This document shows, one piece after another, positions 3,099-11,515 of a DNA stretch of 24,907 nt (position 1 is the stretch's first letter; each line of letters begins with the position of its first letter). The DNA is from a virus. A program made the translations under genes and the position numbers. A model generated the notes under the pieces. The model was not told the origin of the DNA. It did no database searches and saw nothing but the letters and a program-made list of their open reading frames with translations. The stretch is from positions 1 through 24,907 of IMG/VR virus record IMGVR_UViG_3300034105_001477. One strand, given 5' to 3'.

Positions 3099-3254
3099 AT
3101 GATTAATTTAGACTTATCGGTACAAGAAATTAACCTTATCCTACAAGCACTGGGTCAAGCACCTTACGTTCAAGTGGCAGAGTTAGTTGAGAAGATTAAG
3201 GTACAAGCCGTGCCTCAAGTTGAGGCACTACCAAAAGAAGAAGTTTCAGAATAA
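3099..3254 (+). CDS. Small conserved-type phage protein (51 aa)
   Basis: A short gene between the 109-aa protein and the holin. ATG at 3099 is two bases after the previous stop, and the TAA (3252-3254) overlaps the holin start as TAATG. The product begins MINLDLSVQEINLILQALG and continues with YVQVAELVEKIKVQA, two short amphipathic helices, then an acidic tail rich in Glu and Pro. I recall similar ~50-aa helix-turn-helix-shaped proteins near structural and lysis genes in many phages, without a known function. The tight spacing on both sides and the well-formed helices argue that it is real. It has no signal peptide or membrane segment, so it is not an obvious lysis protein. Confidence 0.75.
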   Translation: MINLDLSVQEINLILQALGQAPYVQVAELVEKIKVQAVPQVEALPKEEVSE

Positions 3255-3676
3255 TGTTCGGCATAGATGATGCAATAACTTCGGTGGCCAATCTTGCTTC
3301 CACCGTTGTTGAAAGGATATACCCTGACGCAACCACGATTGAGAAAGCTAAACTTGACCGTATAGCCGCTGAGATAAGTAACGAGTTTAACTTAGTACTT
3401 GGACAACTCGAGATAAATAAAGTCGAAGCTTCGAGTTCCAGTGTATTCATCGCAGGAGCAAGACCTGCGGCAATGTGGGTGGGAGTTATCACCTTGTTCT
3501 ATATAGGGATAGGCGGAAGTTTACTTAATTGGCTTGCCTTATGCTTCAATTTACCCCCATTTCCTGTCATAATTGACTCAGCAAGTACAGATATACTTAT
3601 GGGGTTATTGGGTCTTGGAGGATTGAGAACTTTTGACAAACTGAAAGGTATTGACACAAAAACAATTGGGAAATAA
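3254..3676 (+). CDS. Holin, 3-TM gene-transfer-agent type
   Basis: The 140-aa protein has an amphipathic N-terminal part (residues 1-60), then FIAGARPAAMWVGVI (about 65-79), which matches the GTA_holin_3TM family signature (RP before the first membrane helix). Hydrophobic stretches lie at about 72-98 and 113-125, with a short basic C-terminal tail. Such holins collect in the inner membrane and open holes that let the endolysin reach the wall. It starts at a TAATG overlap and is followed four bases later by the endolysin, a normal lysis cassette order. No spanin gene was recognised nearby. The family call is by motif and context. Confidence 0.85.
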   Translation: MFGIDDAITSVANLASTVVERIYPDATTIEKAKLDRIAAEISNEFNLVLGQLEINKVEASSSSVFIAGARPAAMWVGVITLFYIGIGGSLLNWLALCFNLPPFPVIIDSASTDILMGLLGLGGLRTFDKLKGIDTKTIGK

Positions 3677-3679
3677 TAT

Positions 3680-4240
3680 ATGGTTCTTACGTCTGAACAG
3701 TTACACGATATGATGCCGAATGCCACGGATAAGAATATTGATAAGTTCTTATCACCATTGAATAATGCTATGAAGGAGTTTAATATATTGACTCCTCTTC
3801 AAATATCGGCATTCATCGCCCAAATAACACATGAGAGTGGCTCTTTACATTATGTGGAAGAAATAGCCAGCGGTTCAAATTATGAATTCAGAAAAGATTT
3901 GGGTAATTTGGAATTTGCGGCTTTACAAATAGCTCATGCCAATGATTCAACCACAGGAAAATTTTATAAAGGTCGTGGTCTAATACAAATCACAGGATAC
4001 GATAATTATAAGAAATGTGGAGAAGGTCTCAAGGCCGATTTGATACATAACCCTAGATTATTAAAGGAGACTGAATATGCTTGTCGAAGTGCTGCTTGGT
4101 TTTGGAATACTCATAATCTCAATAGGTTTGCTGATGTGGGTAATTTCGATCGCACAACGAAAATTATTAACGGTGGTCAAAACGGTAAGGCTGATAGGAT
4201 TTCGAACTATCAAAGATGTAAGGGAATACTTGAATGTTAG
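3680..4240 (+). CDS. Endolysin, GH19 chitinase-like muramidase
   Basis: The 186-aa protein covers one catalytic domain of the glycoside hydrolase 19 type that many Gram-negative phages use as endolysin to cut peptidoglycan glycan strands. Visible signatures are FIAQITHESG with the likely catalytic Glu52, a second acidic pair at Glu60/Glu61, KGRGLIQITGYDNY (about 99-112), and INGGQNG near the end. There is no N-terminal signal peptide, so export would depend on the adjacent holin. GGGAAA before the ATG serves as ribosome binding site. The stop overlaps the following small gene by seven bases. Length matches single-domain phage members of the family. Confidence 0.92.
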   Translation: MVLTSEQLHDMMPNATDKNIDKFLSPLNNAMKEFNILTPLQISAFIAQITHESGSLHYVEEIASGSNYEFRKDLGNLEFAALQIAHANDSTTGKFYKGRGLIQITGYDNYKKCGEGLKADLIHNPRLLKETEYACRSAAWFWNTHNLNRFADVGNFDRTTKIINGGQNGKADRISNYQRCKGILEC

Positions 4241-4404
4241 AGTGTGAATTGATATGGGGACGTTTCACCTTCCCTCCGATAAATTTATGGTCAGCTCCAA
4301 AACTAACATATATAGAATATACGGAAAAACGTATAAACAGTAAACAATCATATTCTTCTAGAGTTATCGTGAATCCTATTTACGAACGTAGAAGCTTAAA
4401 CTAA
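4234..4404 (+). CDS. Small conserved-type protein (56 aa) after the endolysin
   Basis: ATG 4234 lies inside the end of the endolysin gene, and the frame runs to TAA at 4402-4404, filling an otherwise empty gap. The 56-aa product begins MLECELIWGRFTFPPINLWS and ends in a basic segment. I recall the WGRFTFPPINLW core in short hypothetical proteins of other phages, which supports it as real. It has no membrane helix or lipobox, so it is not a recognisable spanin. Coupled translation with the endolysin is likely from the overlap. Its function is unknown; the downstream AAGGA at 4403-4407 serves the next gene. Confidence 0.7.
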   Translation: MLECELIWGRFTFPPINLWSAPKLTYIEYTEKRINSKQSYSSRVIVNPIYERRSLN

Positions 4405-4612: not shown

Positions 4613-6175
4613 ATGGCCATAGTTAACGCTGCTCAGTCTTCAGTAAAAACAGTCGCAGATCCAAATGCATCGTATGATTCTTTAAAACCTTTATGGGATA
4701 AAAGTAGGGCTGTCTGCAGTGGGGAGCGTTACGTTAAGGAATTTGACGGCATTGTTGACACAATTCGTTTCACCAATTTACTAATTCCTTTTTCGCCTTC
4801 GATGTCTCAAAGCCAATATGAGTTTTATAAGGCTGAAGCAGAGCTTCCGGGTATCACGGCACAATTTGCCAAGATGCTTGTGGGAGGCTTGTTACGTAAA
4901 CAACCTATACTGACATTACCGAACAGTGTTCCTGAAGAAGCTAAGAACTGGATAATCAATGAGTTCGGAAAAGACGATACACCATTAACATCTTTTCTTG
5001 ATGCTGCATTGTATGATGAGATACAAACTTCAAGAGCTTGGGTTTTTGTGGACTACCCACAAATAATGAATCCTCAAACACTGTCAAGTGAAGATTTCAA
5101 GAAGTTCAAGCCATATCCGATACTGCAAAAAGCAGAATCCATTGTGAATTGGAGAACAAGAACAAACAGTCATGGCAAAACTCTTTTGGATAGAGTCATT
5201 GTTCGTGGTTATAGAGAAAATTATGAAGTTAATGAGTTTCATCCAACATTTCGAGATACCGTTTGGGTACATGAATTGGATGATCAAGATTTATATCGTA
5301 TTCGTATATACGAAAGAACATCAGACACTTCACAAGTCACGGTGATCGACGGTAAACAATATAAGAATTATAATCAAGAAAAAGCCCCTTTCGAATTGGT
5401 CGACACAATTGATAATATATTATCAAATGGCGAAAAATTGGATTATATTCCCGCATGGCCTTTGAACGGTACTGTGGAAGCCGTCGAGCCTATGCTCATG
5501 GCGGTCATTGATAAAGAGATAAGCCTCTACAATAAAATAAGTAGACGTAATCATCTTCTGTACGGTGCTTCAACATATACTCCAATAATCATCTCGGATA
5601 TGCCGGATGATGATTTTGATGAGATTGTTCAAGGTGGTCTGGGTACATGGTTGAGATTGAGACAAGGTGATGACGCTAAGGTTCTTGAAACACCGACAGC
5701 TGCATTGCAAGACATGGATAGAGCAATAGCATCTTCCATTGAAGAAATGTCCAAGCTCGGTATTAAGATGTTATCTCCCGAAACTGCACAATCGGGCGTT
5801 GCTTTGGAAATACGTAATGCGGCTCAAACAGCTCAGTTGGGCACATTGAGTAATAAAATCAGTAATGTGATGAAACAAATCATTACATGTATGATTAATT
5901 GGAGGTATAACTTACAATTAACTTCAGCCGATATTGAGTTCACACTCACAAGTGATTTCAATCCAGTTCCTCTGGGTTCGGATTGGTTACGTCTCGCGAC
6001 CGAATGGTATCAAGCGGGATTGCTGCCAAGATCTGTATGGATTCAATTATTGAAACAAAACGACATGGTTGAACCTGAGTATGATGATGAAGCCGCCAAG
6101 CAAGAAATAACTGCGGATCAAGCATTGATGCCGCAACCTGATGATGCATATGCACAAACAATAACACAACAATAA
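4613..6175 (+). CDS. Portal protein (DUF4055-type)
   Basis: This 520-aa protein matches the size and layout of DUF4055-type phage portals. The N-terminus holds the family pattern YDSLKPLWDKSRAVCSGERYVK (about residues 21-42), then SQYEFYKAEAELPG and FAKMLVGGLLRKQPIL. The middle is alpha/beta with GYRENYEVNEF, and a helical part follows (about 290-450: KEISLYNKISRRNHLLYGA, QSGVALEIRNAAQTAQLG). The acidic, Gln-rich C-terminus is disordered. Twelve copies would form the ring at one capsid vertex through which DNA enters and leaves. It is followed by virion-type genes including a MuF-domain protein, the usual portal partner. No terminase gene precedes it, which is unusual for this kind of gene order. 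Confidence 0.88.
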   Translation: MAIVNAAQSSVKTVADPNASYDSLKPLWDKSRAVCSGERYVKEFDGIVDTIRFTNLLIPFSPSMSQSQYEFYKAEAELPGITAQFAKMLVGGLLRKQPILTLPNSVPEEAKNWIINEFGKDDTPLTSFLDAALYDEIQTSRAWVFVDYPQIMNPQTLSSEDFKKFKPYPILQKAESIVNWRTRTNSHGKTLLDRVIVRGYRENYEVNEFHPTFRDTVWVHELDDQDLYRIRIYERTSDTSQVTVIDGKQYKNYNQEKAPFELVDTIDNILSNGEKLDYIPAWPLNGTVEAVEPMLMAVIDKEISLYNKISRRNHLLYGASTYTPIIISDMPDDDFDEIVQGGLGTWLRLRQGDDAKVLETPTAALQDMDRAIASSIEEMSKLGIKMLSPETAQSGVALEIRNAAQTAQLGTLSNKISNVMKQIITCMINWRYNLQLTSADIEFTLTSDFNPVPLGSDWLRLATEWYQAGLLPRSVWIQLLKQNDMVEPEYDDEAAKQEITADQALMPQPDDAYAQTITQQ

Positions 6176-6185
6176 GGAAAAGAAA

Positions 6186-6635
6186 ATGGCTAAGTTGAAA
6201 GGTGTACCGGGAAAGAAGAATCCTAAATTATCAGCAGCTTTGAAAGGCAATAAAAATGCCAAAGGTTCAGGCGGTGGAGCAAGAGCAGGAGCAATAAGTT
6301 CTCTTGTGGGTGGCGGTATCGGAGCAATGGTCGGAGGTGCATTGGCAGGAGTACATGCCAATAAAACAGTAAATGGTCCAAATAAGGCCAATGGAGAAAG
6401 AGTTATTCGGAGAGCAAGAAGAGCTTCGGCCATTGTCGGTGGAACGACAGGCGCTTTGTTGGGTGCCGCAAAAGGTGCCACTGTGGGCTTGGCAACAGGT
6501 CATCTTGGAGAAGGTGCCGCTGCAGGTGCCGTTGCGGGTGGTACTATAGGAGCCGCAACAAACTATGCAGGTTCAAGAATAGGTGCTAGACTTGCAGGTT
6601 CAGGCAAGTCCAAGTATAAAGCTAAAAAGAAATAA
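6186..6635 (+). CDS. Glycine-zipper, lysine-rich protein (149 aa)
   Basis: The first ~30 residues are strongly basic (MAKLKGVPGKKNPKLS...), as is the C-terminus (SGKSKYKAKKK). Between them are two Gly/Ala-rich hydrophobic stretches at about 33-56 and 82-137, full of GxxxG spacing such as GGGIGAMVGGALAG and GAAAGAVAGGTIGAA. This is the glycine-zipper pattern of membrane-inserting helical hairpins. It lies ten bases after the portal and two before another glycine-rich basic protein. I do not recognise a named family. A virion protein that inserts into the host membrane during ejection, or a DNA-binding internal head protein, would both fit; this is inference from composition and location. Confidence 0.7.
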   Translation: MAKLKGVPGKKNPKLSAALKGNKNAKGSGGGARAGAISSLVGGGIGAMVGGALAGVHANKTVNGPNKANGERVIRRARRASAIVGGTTGALLGAAKGATVGLATGHLGEGAAAGAVAGGTIGAATNYAGSRIGARLAGSGKSKYKAKKK

Positions 6636-6637
6636 CC

Positions 6638-6880
6638 ATGGCCAAGAGAGGAAAGGGCTCAAACCCCGCTTTAAGGGTTAATAATAATGCTGCCGGTAAA
6701 CATAAAAAGAAACCTATACTAATGGGCGCTGTTGCTGGGTTCCTTACAGGTGTTTTACAGCATTCAAGAAATAATGCAGCTTCAAAAGCCCTCTATGAAC
6801 GTAAAGGTTATGGGGTCACTGGTCACACTATCGGAAAGACACTGAGAGCCGCGTCAGGGGCAAACCTCATTTTAAAATAA
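6638..6880 (+). CDS. Small basic protein with one hydrophobic helix (80 aa)
   Basis: The 80-aa product starts MAKRGKGSNPALRVNNNAAG and has a Lys-rich HKKKP just before a hydrophobic helix, ILMGAVAGFLTGVLQH (about 27-42). A Gly/Ala-containing end follows (GHTIGKTLRAASGANLIL). It resembles a short version of the preceding glycine-zipper protein in its MAK start, basic N-terminus and GxxxG-like helix, so the pair may have arisen by duplication, though the similarity is too low to claim homology. Gaps of two and nine bases place it in one operon with the portal and the polymerase fusion. Function unknown; a membrane-active virion component is possible. Confidence 0.65.
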   Translation: MAKRGKGSNPALRVNNNAAGKHKKKPILMGAVAGFLTGVLQHSRNNAASKALYERKGYGVTGHTIGKTLRAASGANLILK

Positions 6881-6889
6881 GGAAAACAA

Positions 6890-9800
6890 ATGGCCATTAA
6901 TGCCAACACAAAAATATACGATAAAACACTGGATAGGGCAGCTATGATACGTCTGTTCGAGAGACGAGTTAACGGTAAAGTTGCGTTGATCATTGATGGT
7001 CATGTTGTTAGGTTGGACAAGTTAATTAAAGATGCAAATCTCTCTCAAAAAGGTTATGAGACCTTCAGAGAAGCCGTGGATAAGGAATTGCAAGGAACTT
7101 ATCGAGAAGCATTTAACACTTCTCGAAAAGATCTTGTCGGAATGGCAGCTGATCAAATATCATTCACATATCAGAACATTGAATCTGCGATGGGTAAGAT
7201 TTGGCAAACTAAAAAGCCGAGAATCATACCTGAGTCTCTGGTACTTGAGAGACCTCTGTACAATGACAGAACACTCGCGGCCGGATGGGTGGGTATCAGT
7301 CTGAATGAAAAGAAACGTTTAGAATCAGTAATTCGAAAAGGTATTGCTGAGGGTAAGACAAATAATGAGATTGCTCTTCTCGTAAGAAAGGGTAATATTC
7401 ATAATATAACTAAAATGCAATCCCAAACACTTGTGACGACATCAATCACAAGTATACGATCACAAGCGGATCGTGAAGTTTACAAAACCAACGAAAAAGC
7501 CCTGCAAGGGTGGCAGTATGTGGCAGTTCTGGATGCGAGAACCACCCCTCTGTGTGCGCACAGGGACGGGGAGATCTACCCTATCAGCGACACACGGCAC
7601 TTGCCTCCGGCACACTGGCATTGTCGTTCGACAACAGTTCCGGTTTTTAAATCTTGGGAGGACATCTCTAAGATAGAGAGTGTTGCTCAGGTGAGGCGAC
7701 AAAACATAGCAAATTTGACAAAAGATCAAATAGCGTTTTATGATGGACAAACTCCATTAAAAGAAACATACAATGATTGGTTGTATCGACAACCTAAAGA
7801 TGTTCAACTTAGACATCTGGGTGATTATCAGAAGTTGGAACTATTCCAATCGGGACAACTGACGCTTGATGGTTTCACTAATGCTGAGGGCAATACAATA
7901 GGCATCAAAGAACTCAGATCGATGACGGATTCAGGGTACACGATGCCCAACGATACAGTTAAGTTTGCGAATGCGAAAGCTCGTTTGGATTCTATGCAAC
8001 TGTATGCAACAACACCAGATGACTTCATAAAAGATCCTAAACTTACACAAACACTTCAAGATTATTACCTATTACAATCGGGCGAATTGAACGGAACACT
8101 TTCTTTGACCAACTATCGCGGTGCCTTAATAGGCAACAAGAAAATTACGAAGAGTAGGGTGTTAACGACTTTACCTAGAGAAGATCAGATGATTTTCAAT
8201 CCGGTGACAGGGCGATATGAAGATACACGTCTATATCAACCCAATATCGGAGTATTGAATAACAACTTAAGACTTGTCGATGAGAGTGATAAACTTCTGG
8301 ATAAAGATAAAGAATTTATCAATACTTTTATCACAGGTTTATCTGAAAAGATGAGTGCCAATGAAAGAGCTGTGATCACAGATAATCTCAGGATTATATT
8401 CGGTCGTCAACGTGAGAATAAGGAACTTTGGGGGAACTTCAAAGCCGTCACACAAGGCCAAATCAAGTTTGATGTGATGAACGTATCCGATGCCATTGAA
8501 ACACAAATACGGAAGGATATAGATCCATTAAAAAGGTTATTACAAGATAATTACATAGACCCTATACTTGGACCGACTCAACTTCAAGATCTTTCAGATA
8601 ATTTTATTTCAAACATATTTAAACGTAATGACTGGGAAGACACTGTAGCTCCTAAGATTTCAAGAGAATTGAGAAATGTATTTGATTATAAAATACCTTT
8701 GAAATTGAAGAATCGATTAAGTGATCAAGACTTGCAACAATTCTATTTAAGATTTTCTCATCGATTGAGCATGGCTGATATGCCCGACAGAGATCAATTT
8801 GCTGTGGCACTAGGTCGTGACCTTTATAATATGGCAAATTATAATGGTACAAGAAACGAATGGTATAACACAGGAATGAAACTTCTTGAGTCGAAGAATA
8901 TAAATAAATTCTTTGAGATTGAAACATACGGTGTTCAAAAAAGAAGAATGAAAAGTCGTCTGAGCGGACAACTCTTCGGGCCATACTATGACTCATTATC
9001 TTTCAATATAAGAGTGACCGATCCTCGTATTCAAGAATACTCACAACTCGTAAGAAAGGTCGATGTGGGCTTACGTGTCGGAGTGACCAATAAAAAGAAT
9101 AAACTGATCTTCAGAGAAGGTTATAAAACATATTTCACCGATCGTGGTGTATTGGGGCTTGAAGATACAAGAATACCGATAACATCGACAAGCAGTTTCA
9201 GTGATTTTCCCGAAGAACTTGTGGATAAAAATATGGTTGATGCTTTGAATTGGGCATCAAAAACAGAATATAAGGTTGATCAAGACTTTTATGATTTCAC
9301 GAAAAAGCTTTTATATTTTCAAGATGATCGAGGTAATGCTCAAAAGTATAATGATCTAAATGAATATCGTAAATATATATCATCCAGAGGAGATGCGTAT
9401 GAAAGATTTAAAGCGATGGATTGGTTACGTAAATCTGATAGTGCTTTTGCTAACCATGCCTTTGTTGATCATCGAGCTAGGATATATGATCGAGGTCTCA
9501 TATCTCCTCAATCTGGAGAGACTTTCAGACCCTTTCTTAACACAGCTGTATCGAAAAATTTTAGTCCTGAAGACTATTCCAACTTTCGAGATCAGATCGG
9601 AGCGTTTCTCGGAGGATTGAGTGACCACTTTGAAGGTAGATACAACTCATTATCAATTACAGGTAGACAAAAGATAGTTGATAAATGGAATGGAGATATT
9701 ATTCAGATCGGTAATCATATGCTCAGAGGAAAGCCTAATGATATCCGTGCTATATTGGATTCAGATTTTGTGTCCAAGATTGACGGAGAAGAGTTGGGTA

Positions 9801-11515
9801 AGTTCTTTCGATTTGCCATTGAGTCAGCTAAGATAGATAATTATCTGGTTGGAGACTATTCAGCAGCTTCTTTGGAAAAACTCAGAGAATATAAAATAGC
9901 GTTGGCTCTCGAACAAGATGCTTCATCTTCCGGTGCTCAGATCATTGCCCTGACAACAAAGAATAAACAACTTGCTGAAATGAGCAATGTCGTACCCACA
10001 ATGCAGAAACGTAGACTGTATGATGAGATCGCTGCGGCAACTTTCAATGATCCTCGTTTCAGAAAGCTGAATGAAAAACTCGGTCTCAATGAAAAGGATT
10101 TAAGAAAAGCCGCCAAAGCGCAGAACATGGTCACATTTTACGGTGCAGGTGAGAAGACAGGTATTATGAGTGTTGAAGGTAAGCTTGCCAAAATACTCGG
10201 TAAAGATACCGACACATTGGTTGTCAAAGCTTCAGATCGTGATATTGTCCTCAATGAAGTGTCAGCAAGAATTGCTCGTGTCGAAAGATATGACCCTGAA
10301 GGTGGAGCGGAACTTAGAGTACTTAGAGAAAATATTAAAAATGTTTTCAACAAAGGCTTAGATCCGGGTGATGATATTATGGAACAATTATTTTTCTTAG
10401 ATCCAAAGACAAAAGATTTAGTTGAAAAGATGTCACGATCTTATGAAAGAATAGTTACCCCTGAAGACTTCAAGACTATCGCCAAAATAATGAGTGAGAA
10501 CCTTAGAGATCAAGTACCGATACTTAAAGACTTTACTAAGTATTTCGGAAGACTCGCTGAAGACTTTTTGAATAATGCCAGACCATCATCAAGTGATTTC
10601 GATTGGAAATCTATAGCTAAGGGTCAAGTACTCGGAGATCGCAAAAGAGGTTATATACTGCCTGACAGGATAAGTGAAATATTAGGATTGAAGGCCGGTG
10701 AGCCTGTGAGTGAGAAGCTTATCAAGCGATTCGGTTTTTGGAAACCCAATGGAACTATGGCGGATATTATATATGGTGTTAAGGCTCCAGATAATAGACG
10801 TACAGGATTTACAACGCTTAAGCTTGATGTTGCTCAGATAGATATCACTAAGGGTATTGAAGTATTCACAGCAAACAAAATGCCGAAGAGTTGGACAAAT
10901 GCACCTTCGGTAAACTTTGATGGCAAGGTCATTGAACAGAATTTTACACAAAATTTTGAAGAGAGACTCACCTACAAAGACAAAGATGGTAAATGGGTTA
11001 CAAACATTCTTCAAATACCGCAGAAGACTGAAGCAACATGGTGGGAACAAGTCATAAACAAATCTGGAAAGATCAATGATATTGTTGATGCCACTCGTGC
11101 CAGAACAGCTTTTGGAGTAAACATGAATCATTCCAATGATGCCACTCTCGTTAAGAAGTTCCACTTATGGGGTAAGGAGAATAATGTTCCTACTTCAACA
11201 ATTCATGATGCATTCTTCGCAAATGCGGCTGATATGTTAAAAGCTCGAAAAGCTCTTAGAGAAATATATTCAACTGTATTGGAAAGAAATGTAATTCAAG
11301 ATACACTTAATGAGATGAGGTCTAGAGGCTTACCTAAAGAGCTTTACGATAAGTATTTGAATGAAGCTAAGGATATAGGGTTAATCCCTATCCCTGGCAG
11401 GTCTGTCGTTGGAGGTAAAGTTTTGGAAGAAAAGGATATCTTGAAATTTGAAGATATTATAAAAGAAATTCCGGAAGGATTTAAAGATGACTATGGGTGG
11501 TATGGTATTGGGTAA
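6890..11515 (+). CDS. MuF-type minor head protein fused to a T7/N4-like single-subunit RNA polymerase (putative virion RNAP)
   Basis: One uninterrupted 1541-aa frame with a good AAGGA site. Residues ~1-255 are a MuF/SPP1 gp7-like minor head domain, with core DARTTPLCAHRDG (Asp215, Cys222) and LPPAHWHCRS (His242, Cys245). Residues ~800-1541 hold the single-subunit RNA polymerase motifs, matched here with T7 RNAP residues from memory: DHRARIY at 860-866 (T7 D421-Y427); motif A DASSSGAQ, Asp1010 (D537); motif B Arg1072, Lys1076, Tyr1084, Gly1085 (R627, K631, Y639, G640, identical spacing); HSND at 1414-1417 (H784-D787); motif C HDAF, His1439-Asp1440 (H811-D812). Residues 256-800 are unrecognised. 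Motifs B to C are 356 residues apart against 173 in T7, so a large insertion exists. All catalytic residues are present, suggesting an active enzyme that is packaged via the head domain and delivered at infection. Confidence 0.9.
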   Translation: MAINANTKIYDKTLDRAAMIRLFERRVNGKVALIIDGHVVRLDKLIKDANLSQKGYETFREAVDKELQGTYREAFNTSRKDLVGMAADQISFTYQNIESAMGKIWQTKKPRIIPESLVLERPLYNDRTLAAGWVGISLNEKKRLESVIRKGIAEGKTNNEIALLVRKGNIHNITKMQSQTLVTTSITSIRSQADREVYKTNEKALQGWQYVAVLDARTTPLCAHRDGEIYPISDTRHLPPAHWHCRSTTVPVFKSWEDISKIESVAQVRRQNIANLTKDQIAFYDGQTPLKETYNDWLYRQPKDVQLRHLGDYQKLELFQSGQLTLDGFTNAEGNTIGIKELRSMTDSGYTMPNDTVKFANAKARLDSMQLYATTPDDFIKDPKLTQTLQDYYLLQSGELNGTLSLTNYRGALIGNKKITKSRVLTTLPREDQMIFNPVTGRYEDTRLYQPNIGVLNNNLRLVDESDKLLDKDKEFINTFITGLSEKMSANERAVITDNLRIIFGRQRENKELWGNFKAVTQGQIKFDVMNVSDAIETQIRKDIDPLKRLLQDNYIDPILGPTQLQDLSDNFISNIFKRNDWEDTVAPKISRELRNVFDYKIPLKLKNRLSDQDLQQFYLRFSHRLSMADMPDRDQFAVALGRDLYNMANYNGTRNEWYNTGMKLLESKNINKFFEIETYGVQKRRMKSRLSGQLFGPYYDSLSFNIRVTDPRIQEYSQLVRKVDVGLRVGVTNKKNKLIFREGYKTYFTDRGVLGLEDTRIPITSTSSFSDFPEELVDKNMVDALNWASKTEYKVDQDFYDFTKKLLYFQDDRGNAQKYNDLNEYRKYISSRGDAYERFKAMDWLRKSDSAFANHAFVDHRARIYDRGLISPQSGETFRPFLNTAVSKNFSPEDYSNFRDQIGAFLGGLSDHFEGRYNSLSITGRQKIVDKWNGDIIQIGNHMLRGKPNDIRAILDSDFVSKIDGEELGKFFRFAIESAKIDNYLVGDYSAASLEKLREYKIALALEQDASSSGAQIIALTTKNKQLAEMSNVVPTMQKRRLYDEIAAATFNDPRFRKLNEKLGLNEKDLRKAAKAQNMVTFYGAGEKTGIMSVEGKLAKILGKDTDTLVVKASDRDIVLNEVSARIARVERYDPEGGAELRVLRENIKNVFNKGLDPGDDIMEQLFFLDPKTKDLVEKMSRSYERIVTPEDFKTIAKIMSENLRDQVPILKDFTKYFGRLAEDFLNNARPSSSDFDWKSIAKGQVLGDRKRGYILPDRISEILGLKAGEPVSEKLIKRFGFWKPNGTMADIIYGVKAPDNRRTGFTTLKLDVAQIDITKGIEVFTANKMPKSWTNAPSVNFDGKVIEQNFTQNFEERLTYKDKDGKWVTNILQIPQKTEATWWEQVINKSGKINDIVDATRARTAFGVNMNHSNDATLVKKFHLWGKENNVPTSTIHDAFFANAADMLKARKALREIYSTVLERNVIQDTLNEMRSRGLPKELYDKYLNEAKDIGLIPIPGRSVVGGKVLEEKDILKFEDIIKEIPEGFKDDYGWYGIG

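What the first reader, a model, noticed from the sequence alone, without database searches (positions are those of the whole stretch)
6186..6880. Pair of basic, glycine-zipper small proteins between portal and the polymerase fusion
Both have Lys/Arg-rich ends and GxxxG-rich hydrophobic segments, typical of membrane-inserting hairpins. Their place in the same tight operon as the portal and the putative virion polymerase suggests that they could help form a path through the host envelope, or pack as internal head proteins. This could be the missing delivery partner set for a large ejected enzyme in a siphovirus.
Basis: inference. Interest (0 to 1): 0.6.

Follow-up and report, generated by a model that had tools for sequence, protein, structure and literature searches.

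The report
Swappable small proteins beside phage portal
Two small, very basic proteins sit between the portal and polymerase-fusion genes of a tailed phage; they are not fixed partners of that polymerase but two of many interchangeable proteins, sharing a short N-terminal tag, that turn over at this spot and are probably minor internal head proteins.

Summary
Both genes are real and in tight operon order: portal, A (149 aa), B (80 aa), MuF-RNA-polymerase fusion. A has more glycine zippers than shuffled sequence (P about 0.001). B does not (P 0.12), and neither has a convincing transmembrane segment. They are not the fusion's delivery partners. EBPR siphovirus 1 and both DSS3 phages carry the fusion without them. 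Among 41 fusion phages, the content of this gene slot shows no phylogenetic signal: empty 14, tagged genes 14, others 13. The nearest relative (95% identical MuF) carries different slot genes. Both proteins belong to small unannotated families and carry an N-terminal tag, [G/V]NxNAxG(xHKK). The tag lies only in this slot in 16 fusion-phage records (981 kb). Elsewhere it marks small terminase subunits, tandem arrays of small basic genes between terminase genes, and toxin-like tails of portal proteins. In one relative, five tandem genes keep the tag while their bodies differ. A conserved short leader on variable small basic bodies, patchily present in the head operon, resembles T4 internal proteins with capsid-targeting sequences. 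I therefore favour accessory internal head proteins loaded by the leader (confidence 0.4). No virion data exist.

The parts
4613..6175 (+). portal protein, upstream border of the variable slot
   Evidence: phrog_145 E 8e-56, Pfam DUF4055 3e-9
6186..6635 (+). protein A, 149 aa, pI 11.8, glycine-zipper type
   Evidence: ORF; zippers 8 vs 1.6 expected; leader-free body scores 69.7 bits against a profile of relatives, best of 1000 shuffles 37.8; no PHROG, Pfam only sub-threshold glycine zipper
6219..6266 (+). leader motif of A (NPKLSAALKGNKNAKG, residues 12-27)
   Evidence: GNxNA motif shared with slot proteins of other MuF-RNAP phages
6291..6353 (+). first glycine-zipper segment of A (residues 36-56)
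   Evidence: best KD19 window 1.58 at residue 36
6429..6569 (+). second, longer glycine-zipper segment of A (residues 82-128)
   Evidence: Pfam Gly-zipper_YMGG E 0.0015 at 85-127, below its cut-off
6606..6632 (+). lysine-rich C-terminal tail of A (residues 141-149), preceded by NYAGSRIG
   Evidence: sequence; Y[AG][GA]x[RK][IL]G and basic tail conserved in L138, L080, L046, L006, L217
6638..6880 (+). protein B, 80 aa, pI 11.6
   Evidence: ORF; leader-free body 28.2 bits against L027/L029/L082 profile, best shuffle 9.9; relatives L027 vs L029 dN 0.006, dS 0.084
6662..6712 (+). leader motif of B (NPALRVNNNAAGKHKKK, residues 9-25)
   Evidence: matches NPALRGNKNASGPHKK of L006 and GNKNAAGPHKK of L027/L029
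6713..6757 (+). 15-residue hydrophobic segment of B (PILMGAVAGFLTGVL)
   Evidence: too short for a typical transmembrane helix
6890..11515 (+). MuF head protein fused to a single-subunit RNA polymerase, downstream border of the slot
   Evidence: Pfam Phage_Mu_F 1.2e-12 and RNA_pol 3.7e-13; phrog_241 4e-59, phrog_414 1e-19

Best explanation
A and B are two of a pool of interchangeable small basic proteins that occupy a variable gene slot between portal and MuF-RNAP. Shown: the slot, its turnover, and the short N-terminal leader ([G/V]NxNAxG, often followed by xHKK) shared by otherwise different bodies. Inferred: the proteins are made late with the head genes, and the leader brings them to the assembling head or to the DNA being packaged, so that they end up inside the capsid as minor internal proteins. 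The bodies (glycine-zipper in A, short helices in B) act on DNA condensation, exit or early infection, and are optional, as T4 IPI-IPIII are. They do not form an obligatory channel for the polymerase.
For: Leader is slot-specific: all 14 regex-matching ORFs out of 4768 in 76 loci plus the window lie between portal and MuF; in 16 whole records of fusion phages the DNA pattern occurs 3 times, always in the slot, reversed control 0. Across IMG/VR GNxNAxGxHKK gives 13 stretches, 9 in MuF-RNAP phages (8 in the slot); the reversed peptide gives 0. Leader kept, body variable: five tandem genes in L073, four with 16-18 of the first 18 residues identical and 35 synonymous against 6 non-synonymous codon differences there, while bodies share about 29-38% of aligned residues; similar 5-7 gene arrays starting MGAPxGNxNAxG in unrelated L228/L230/L243, in L230 between terminase small and large subunit genes. 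Slot content has no phylogenetic signal. A and B belong to real families beyond composition. T4 parallel: a 10-residue N-terminal sequence suffices for head targeting, and IPs are small, basic, optional and poorly conserved between relatives (PMC9026906); P1 DarB has an N-terminal targeting signal (PMC9024508).
Against: No virion proteomics for any member. The same motif is best known from small terminase subunits, which as far as known are not packaged, so it may bind DNA or terminase rather than mark cargo. No cleavage site or prohead-protease dependence was tested. One relative (L082) has two tagged genes elsewhere, downstream of the capsid genes. AlphaFold models are poor (mean pLDDT 57.5 and 59.7).
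Confidence: 0.4

Rival explanations
1. The leader is a DNA- or terminase-binding element borrowed from small terminase subunits, and A/B act in genome packaging or DNA condensation at the portal rather than as delivered cargo.
For: GAPxGNxNAxG is mainly a terminase small subunit motif in IMG/VR; 31 N-terminal leader matches are mostly small genes directly upstream of a putative large terminase, one of them (L327) scoring as terminase small subunit; the array in L230 lies between the terminase genes; A and B are strongly basic.
Against: A glycine-zipper body is odd for a packaging factor; patchy presence shows packaging works without them.
Confidence: 0.22
2. One reading: membrane-inserting hairpins that build the path by which the fused polymerase crosses the host envelope.
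For: A has zippers above chance; sub-threshold Pfam glycine-zipper matches; all A-type proteins found lie in MuF-RNAP phages.
Against: Fusion phages with an empty or unrelated slot are common and scattered on the tree; EBPR siphovirus 1 and DSS3 phages lack them; no KD19 window reaches 1.6 in A, and B's hydrophobic stretch is 15 residues; A- and B-types were not seen together elsewhere.
Confidence: 0.1
3. The slot is an insertion hot spot; A and B are fast-evolving accessory or stray ORFs with no virion role.
For: Slot also holds an HNH-like gene (L036), a tail-fibre-like block (L032) and a tRNA gene (DSS3).
Against: Purifying selection in a B-type pair (dN 0.006, dS 0.084) and on the leader; the same leader reappears in divergent phages with different bodies.
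Confidence: 0.2
4. A is a holin or other lysis protein.
For: Small glycine-rich protein with two weakly hydrophobic segments.
Against: The phage already has a holin (3254-3676, GTA_holin_3TM 2.8e-11, phrog_3427 1e-23) next to its GH19 endolysin (3680-4240, phrog_181 2e-57).
Confidence: 0.03

Closest known systems
Phage T4 internal proteins IPI, IPII, IPIII with capsid-targeting sequence (PMC9026906)
   Same: small basic proteins; short shared N-terminal leader; variable bodies; not conserved between close relatives; dispensable
   Different: different leader sequence; no shown packaging or cleavage; here encoded between portal and MuF of a siphovirus-like phage; one type has glycine zippers
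Terminase small subunits with GAPxGNxNAxG (PBSX-like; phrog_1889, phrog_509)
   Same: the short motif itself, N-terminal in one subgroup
   Different: A and B lack the helix-turn-helix and the HGFYS... body and lie at portal-MuF, not next to the large terminase
Ejection proteins of P22 (gp7, gp16, gp20) and the injected virion RNAP of N4 (PMC8402733 abstract; PMC5512222)
   Same: setting: proteins or a polymerase delivered with the DNA
   Different: no family match to them; A and B are far smaller and not universal among the polymerase-carrying phages
Glycine-zipper families (Pfam Gly-zipper_YMGG, Gly-zipper_OmpA)
   Same: repeated GxxxG in weakly hydrophobic helices
   Different: matches below curated cut-offs; no signal peptide or lipobox seen by eye

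Membership tests
T4-type capsid-targeted internal proteins | short conserved N-terminal leader on divergent bodies | tested here: met
T4-type capsid-targeted internal proteins | small, basic, optional, differing between close relatives | tested here: met
T4-type capsid-targeted internal proteins | homologous leader sequence (T4 CTS) | not tested
   no alignment to T4 IPs was made
T4-type capsid-targeted internal proteins | leader needed and sufficient for packaging, removed by prohead protease | not testable with these tools
   needs virions
Terminase small subunit | match to a terminase small subunit family | tested here: not met
   A: no PHROG at E<=1; B: only acetyltransferase and an unknown family at E about 0.1
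Terminase small subunit | GNxNA motif | tested here: met
Obligatory delivery partners of MuF-RNAP | present whenever the fusion is present | tested here: not met
Obligatory delivery partners of MuF-RNAP | absent where the fusion is absent | tested here: inconclusive
   no GNxNAxG in 43 RNAP-less Kolga-type loci, but other basic small proteins there
Membrane glycine-zipper hairpins | glycine zippers above chance | tested here: inconclusive
   met for A, not for B
Membrane glycine-zipper hairpins | transmembrane-grade hydrophobic helices | tested here: not met
   max KD19 1.58 (A) and 0.93 (B); simple scale only

The most novel reading that the evidence does not exclude
[GV]NxNAxG(xH[KR]) is a general phage head-loading leader: it tags small basic proteins in head operons of unrelated phages (portal-MuF slot here; tandem arrays beside terminase genes in L228/L230/L243), and as an internal linker it precedes toxin-like domains on portal proteins (L213). 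It would route cargo into the virion, and its presence in small terminases would mean loading through the packaging complex.
Probability: 0.15. Interest if true: 0.8.

Novelty: new variant of a known kind. Interest (0 to 1): 0.48.

Why it matters
If right, phages with MuF-RNAP fusions carry an exchangeable set of small internal proteins marked by a 12-18 residue leader that can be recognised from sequence, so candidate head cargo could be predicted in uncultured phages and tested by a reporter fusion. It also removes a wrong lead: the polymerase fusion does not depend on this pair for delivery.

Tried and rejected
tblastn of A, B and a synthetic leader against annotated phages: A and B none, leader only two phiCD27 terminase small subunit records at E 3 (low-complexity filter on). 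Pfam/PHROG on 28 slot proteins: only sub-threshold or generic zipper matches, and one strong PHROG of unknown function (phrog_2423, 8e-22), by inference the DUF6496-like members. AlphaFold for A and B: too poor for fold search. Profile search with the A-type alignment: no stretch conserved enough. Search for the fusion in genomes of 84,980 prokaryote species: none. Literature for the motif, for MuF-RNAP fusion and for glycine zippers in virions: nothing on these proteins. Considered and rejected: holin (a holin is present elsewhere), terminase small subunit (no family match), obligatory RNAP partner (tree), NUMOD3 (no Pfam hit).

Full report
WHAT IS THERE. The two ORFs exist as described: A at 6186-6635 (149 aa) and B at 6638-6880 (80 aa), with 10, 2 and 9 nt between portal, A, B and the MuF-RNAP gene. 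Codon usage in the reading frame resembles the long genes of the window. Both small proteins are extremely basic. A has glycine zippers beyond chance (8 GxxxGxxxG against 1.6 in shuffles); B does not. Neither has a convincing transmembrane segment by a simple scale: the best 19-residue hydropathy mean is 1.58 for A and 0.93 for B.

THE SLOT. 71 IMG/VR loci encode the fusion. The interval between portal and MuF is highly variable. In 41 non-redundant phages it is empty in 14 (DSS3_VP1, with only a tRNA gene there, counted as empty), holds genes with a GNxNA motif in 14, genes with an NPKGxNQY motif in 3, and others in 10, including DUF6496-like 50-aa proteins. Five of the 14 GNxNA phages (L080, L083, L138, L217, L252) came from motif searches, so the unbiased figure is 9 of 36. 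On a maximum-likelihood tree of the MuF region the GNxNA label needs 13 changes for 14 rows, no better than shuffled labels (mean 11.8; 464 of 500 shuffles as low); many forks of that tree are poorly supported. The closest relative, L006 (95% identical over this part of MuF), has a DUF6496-like gene and one 147-aa tagged gene instead of A and B; L033, also close, has nothing. EBPR siphovirus 1 has no room in the slot and the two DSS3 phages have a tRNA gene there. The pair is therefore not a fixed accessory of the polymerase.

THE SHARED LEADER. Both N-termini carry the same short motif: ALKGNKNAKG in A, ALRVNNNAAGKHKKK in B. Among 4768 mechanical ORFs of 76 loci and the window, all 14 matches to a GNxNA expression are slot genes (the loci cover about 6 kb around MuF). 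In 16 whole records (981 kb) the DNA pattern for GNxNAxG occurs three times, always in the slot, and the reversed control never. Over all of IMG/VR the longer form GNxNAxGxHKK gives 13 stretches, 9 of them in MuF-RNAP phages, against 0 for the reversed peptide. L073 has five tandem slot genes; four keep 16-18 of 18 leader residues with mostly synonymous codon differences (35 against 6) while the bodies diverge.

FAMILIES. With the leader removed, A still scores 69.7 bits against a profile of its relatives (L138, L080, L046, L006, L073, L041, L217), the best of 1000 composition-matched shuffles reaching 37.8; B scores 28.2 against L027/L029/L082, best shuffle 9.9. The relatives were chosen because they looked alike, so this shows shared order beyond composition, not an unbiased discovery. 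A-type proteins share leader, zipper, basic linker, zipper, Y[AG][GA]x[RK][IL]G and a basic tail. A- and B-types were seen together only in the window. In L082 two tagged genes, one of B type, lie downstream of the capsid genes, so the slot is not the only possible place.

WHERE ELSE THE LEADER OCCURS. A start-codon-anchored version gave 31 stretches: 5 lie in MuF-RNAP phages and carry zipper genes, the rest are mostly small genes directly upstream of a putative large terminase; one of these (L327) scores as terminase small subunit. Unrelated phages L228, L230 and L243 have 5-7 tandem small basic genes all starting MGAPxGNxNAxG; in L230 they lie between terminase small and large subunit genes, with a portal next. 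The motif also links a portal to a toxin-like C-terminal domain in L213 (the toxin-like reading is my own from the sequence, not a database match). No paper in the library mentions the motif strings searched.

CONTROL WITHOUT THE POLYMERASE. The Kolga-type pelagiphages have a 47% identical portal and a MuF without polymerase. In 43 such loci no GNxNAxG occurs in 1222 ORFs, but other short lysine-rich proteins sit at the same place. Small basic proteins at this position thus do not need the polymerase, while the A-type has so far been seen only with it. That one-way link is weak evidence, since slot and fusion belong to one group of phages.

MOST LIKELY FUNCTION. A conserved short N-terminal leader, variable small basic bodies, optional presence and a head-operon position match T4 internal proteins, where a 10-residue capsid-targeting sequence is enough for packaging and the proteins differ between relatives (PMC9026906); P1 DarB is a second case of an N-terminal head-targeting signal (PMC9024508). 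I infer that A and B are accessory internal head proteins. Packaging, any targeting role of the leader and the function of the bodies are not shown. The main rival is that the leader binds DNA or terminase, as its presence in small terminases suggests; the two are compatible if loading goes through the packaging complex. They work like T4 IPs at most; membership is not claimed.

Noticed in passing
L002, L036, L039, L041, L046, L060, L070: The MuF-RNAP match spans 5.1-6.3 kb instead of 4.6 kb in several relatives, and EBPR siphovirus 1 has an HNH endonuclease gene (gp48) inside it: the fusion gene looks like a repeated target of intron or homing-endonuclease insertion; the window copy is uninterrupted.
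   Followed up: no
window 6890-11515: MuF-single-subunit RNAP fusion of full length is shared with marine Naomviridae (DSS3_VP1/PM1, 28%) and EBPR siphovirus 1 (57%), but no relative was found in genomes of 84,980 prokaryote species: apparently a lytic lineage.
   Followed up: partly
L228 1814-3226, L230 4596-6227, L243 165-1965: Tandem arrays of 5-7 small basic genes each starting MGAPxGNxNAxG; in L230 between terminase small and large subunit genes.
   Followed up: partly
L213 4109-6559, L215, L077/L087: The motif GAPxGNxNAxGxH directly precedes a toxin-like C-terminal domain; in L213 it follows the portal domain.
   Followed up: no
window 3254-4240: Lysis cassette: GTA-type 3TM holin (3254-3676) and GH19 endolysin (3680-4240), with a small hydrophobic ORF overlapping the endolysin end (4077-4247) that could be a spanin.
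   Followed up: partly
L010, L013, L016, L038, L040, L006 slot: DUF6496-like 47-52 aa proteins (MPLKKGxSxKxISxNISxxxxxGKPQKQAVAIAL) are a second recurrent slot gene.
   Followed up: no
L018, L021, L023 slot: A third slot type has the motif NNPKGxNQYxxG at the N-terminus, perhaps a functional equivalent of the GNxNA leader.
   Followed up: no
window 6047-6481 (-): A 144-codon antisense ORF overlaps A; probably a shadow of A's GC-rich codons.
   Followed up: no
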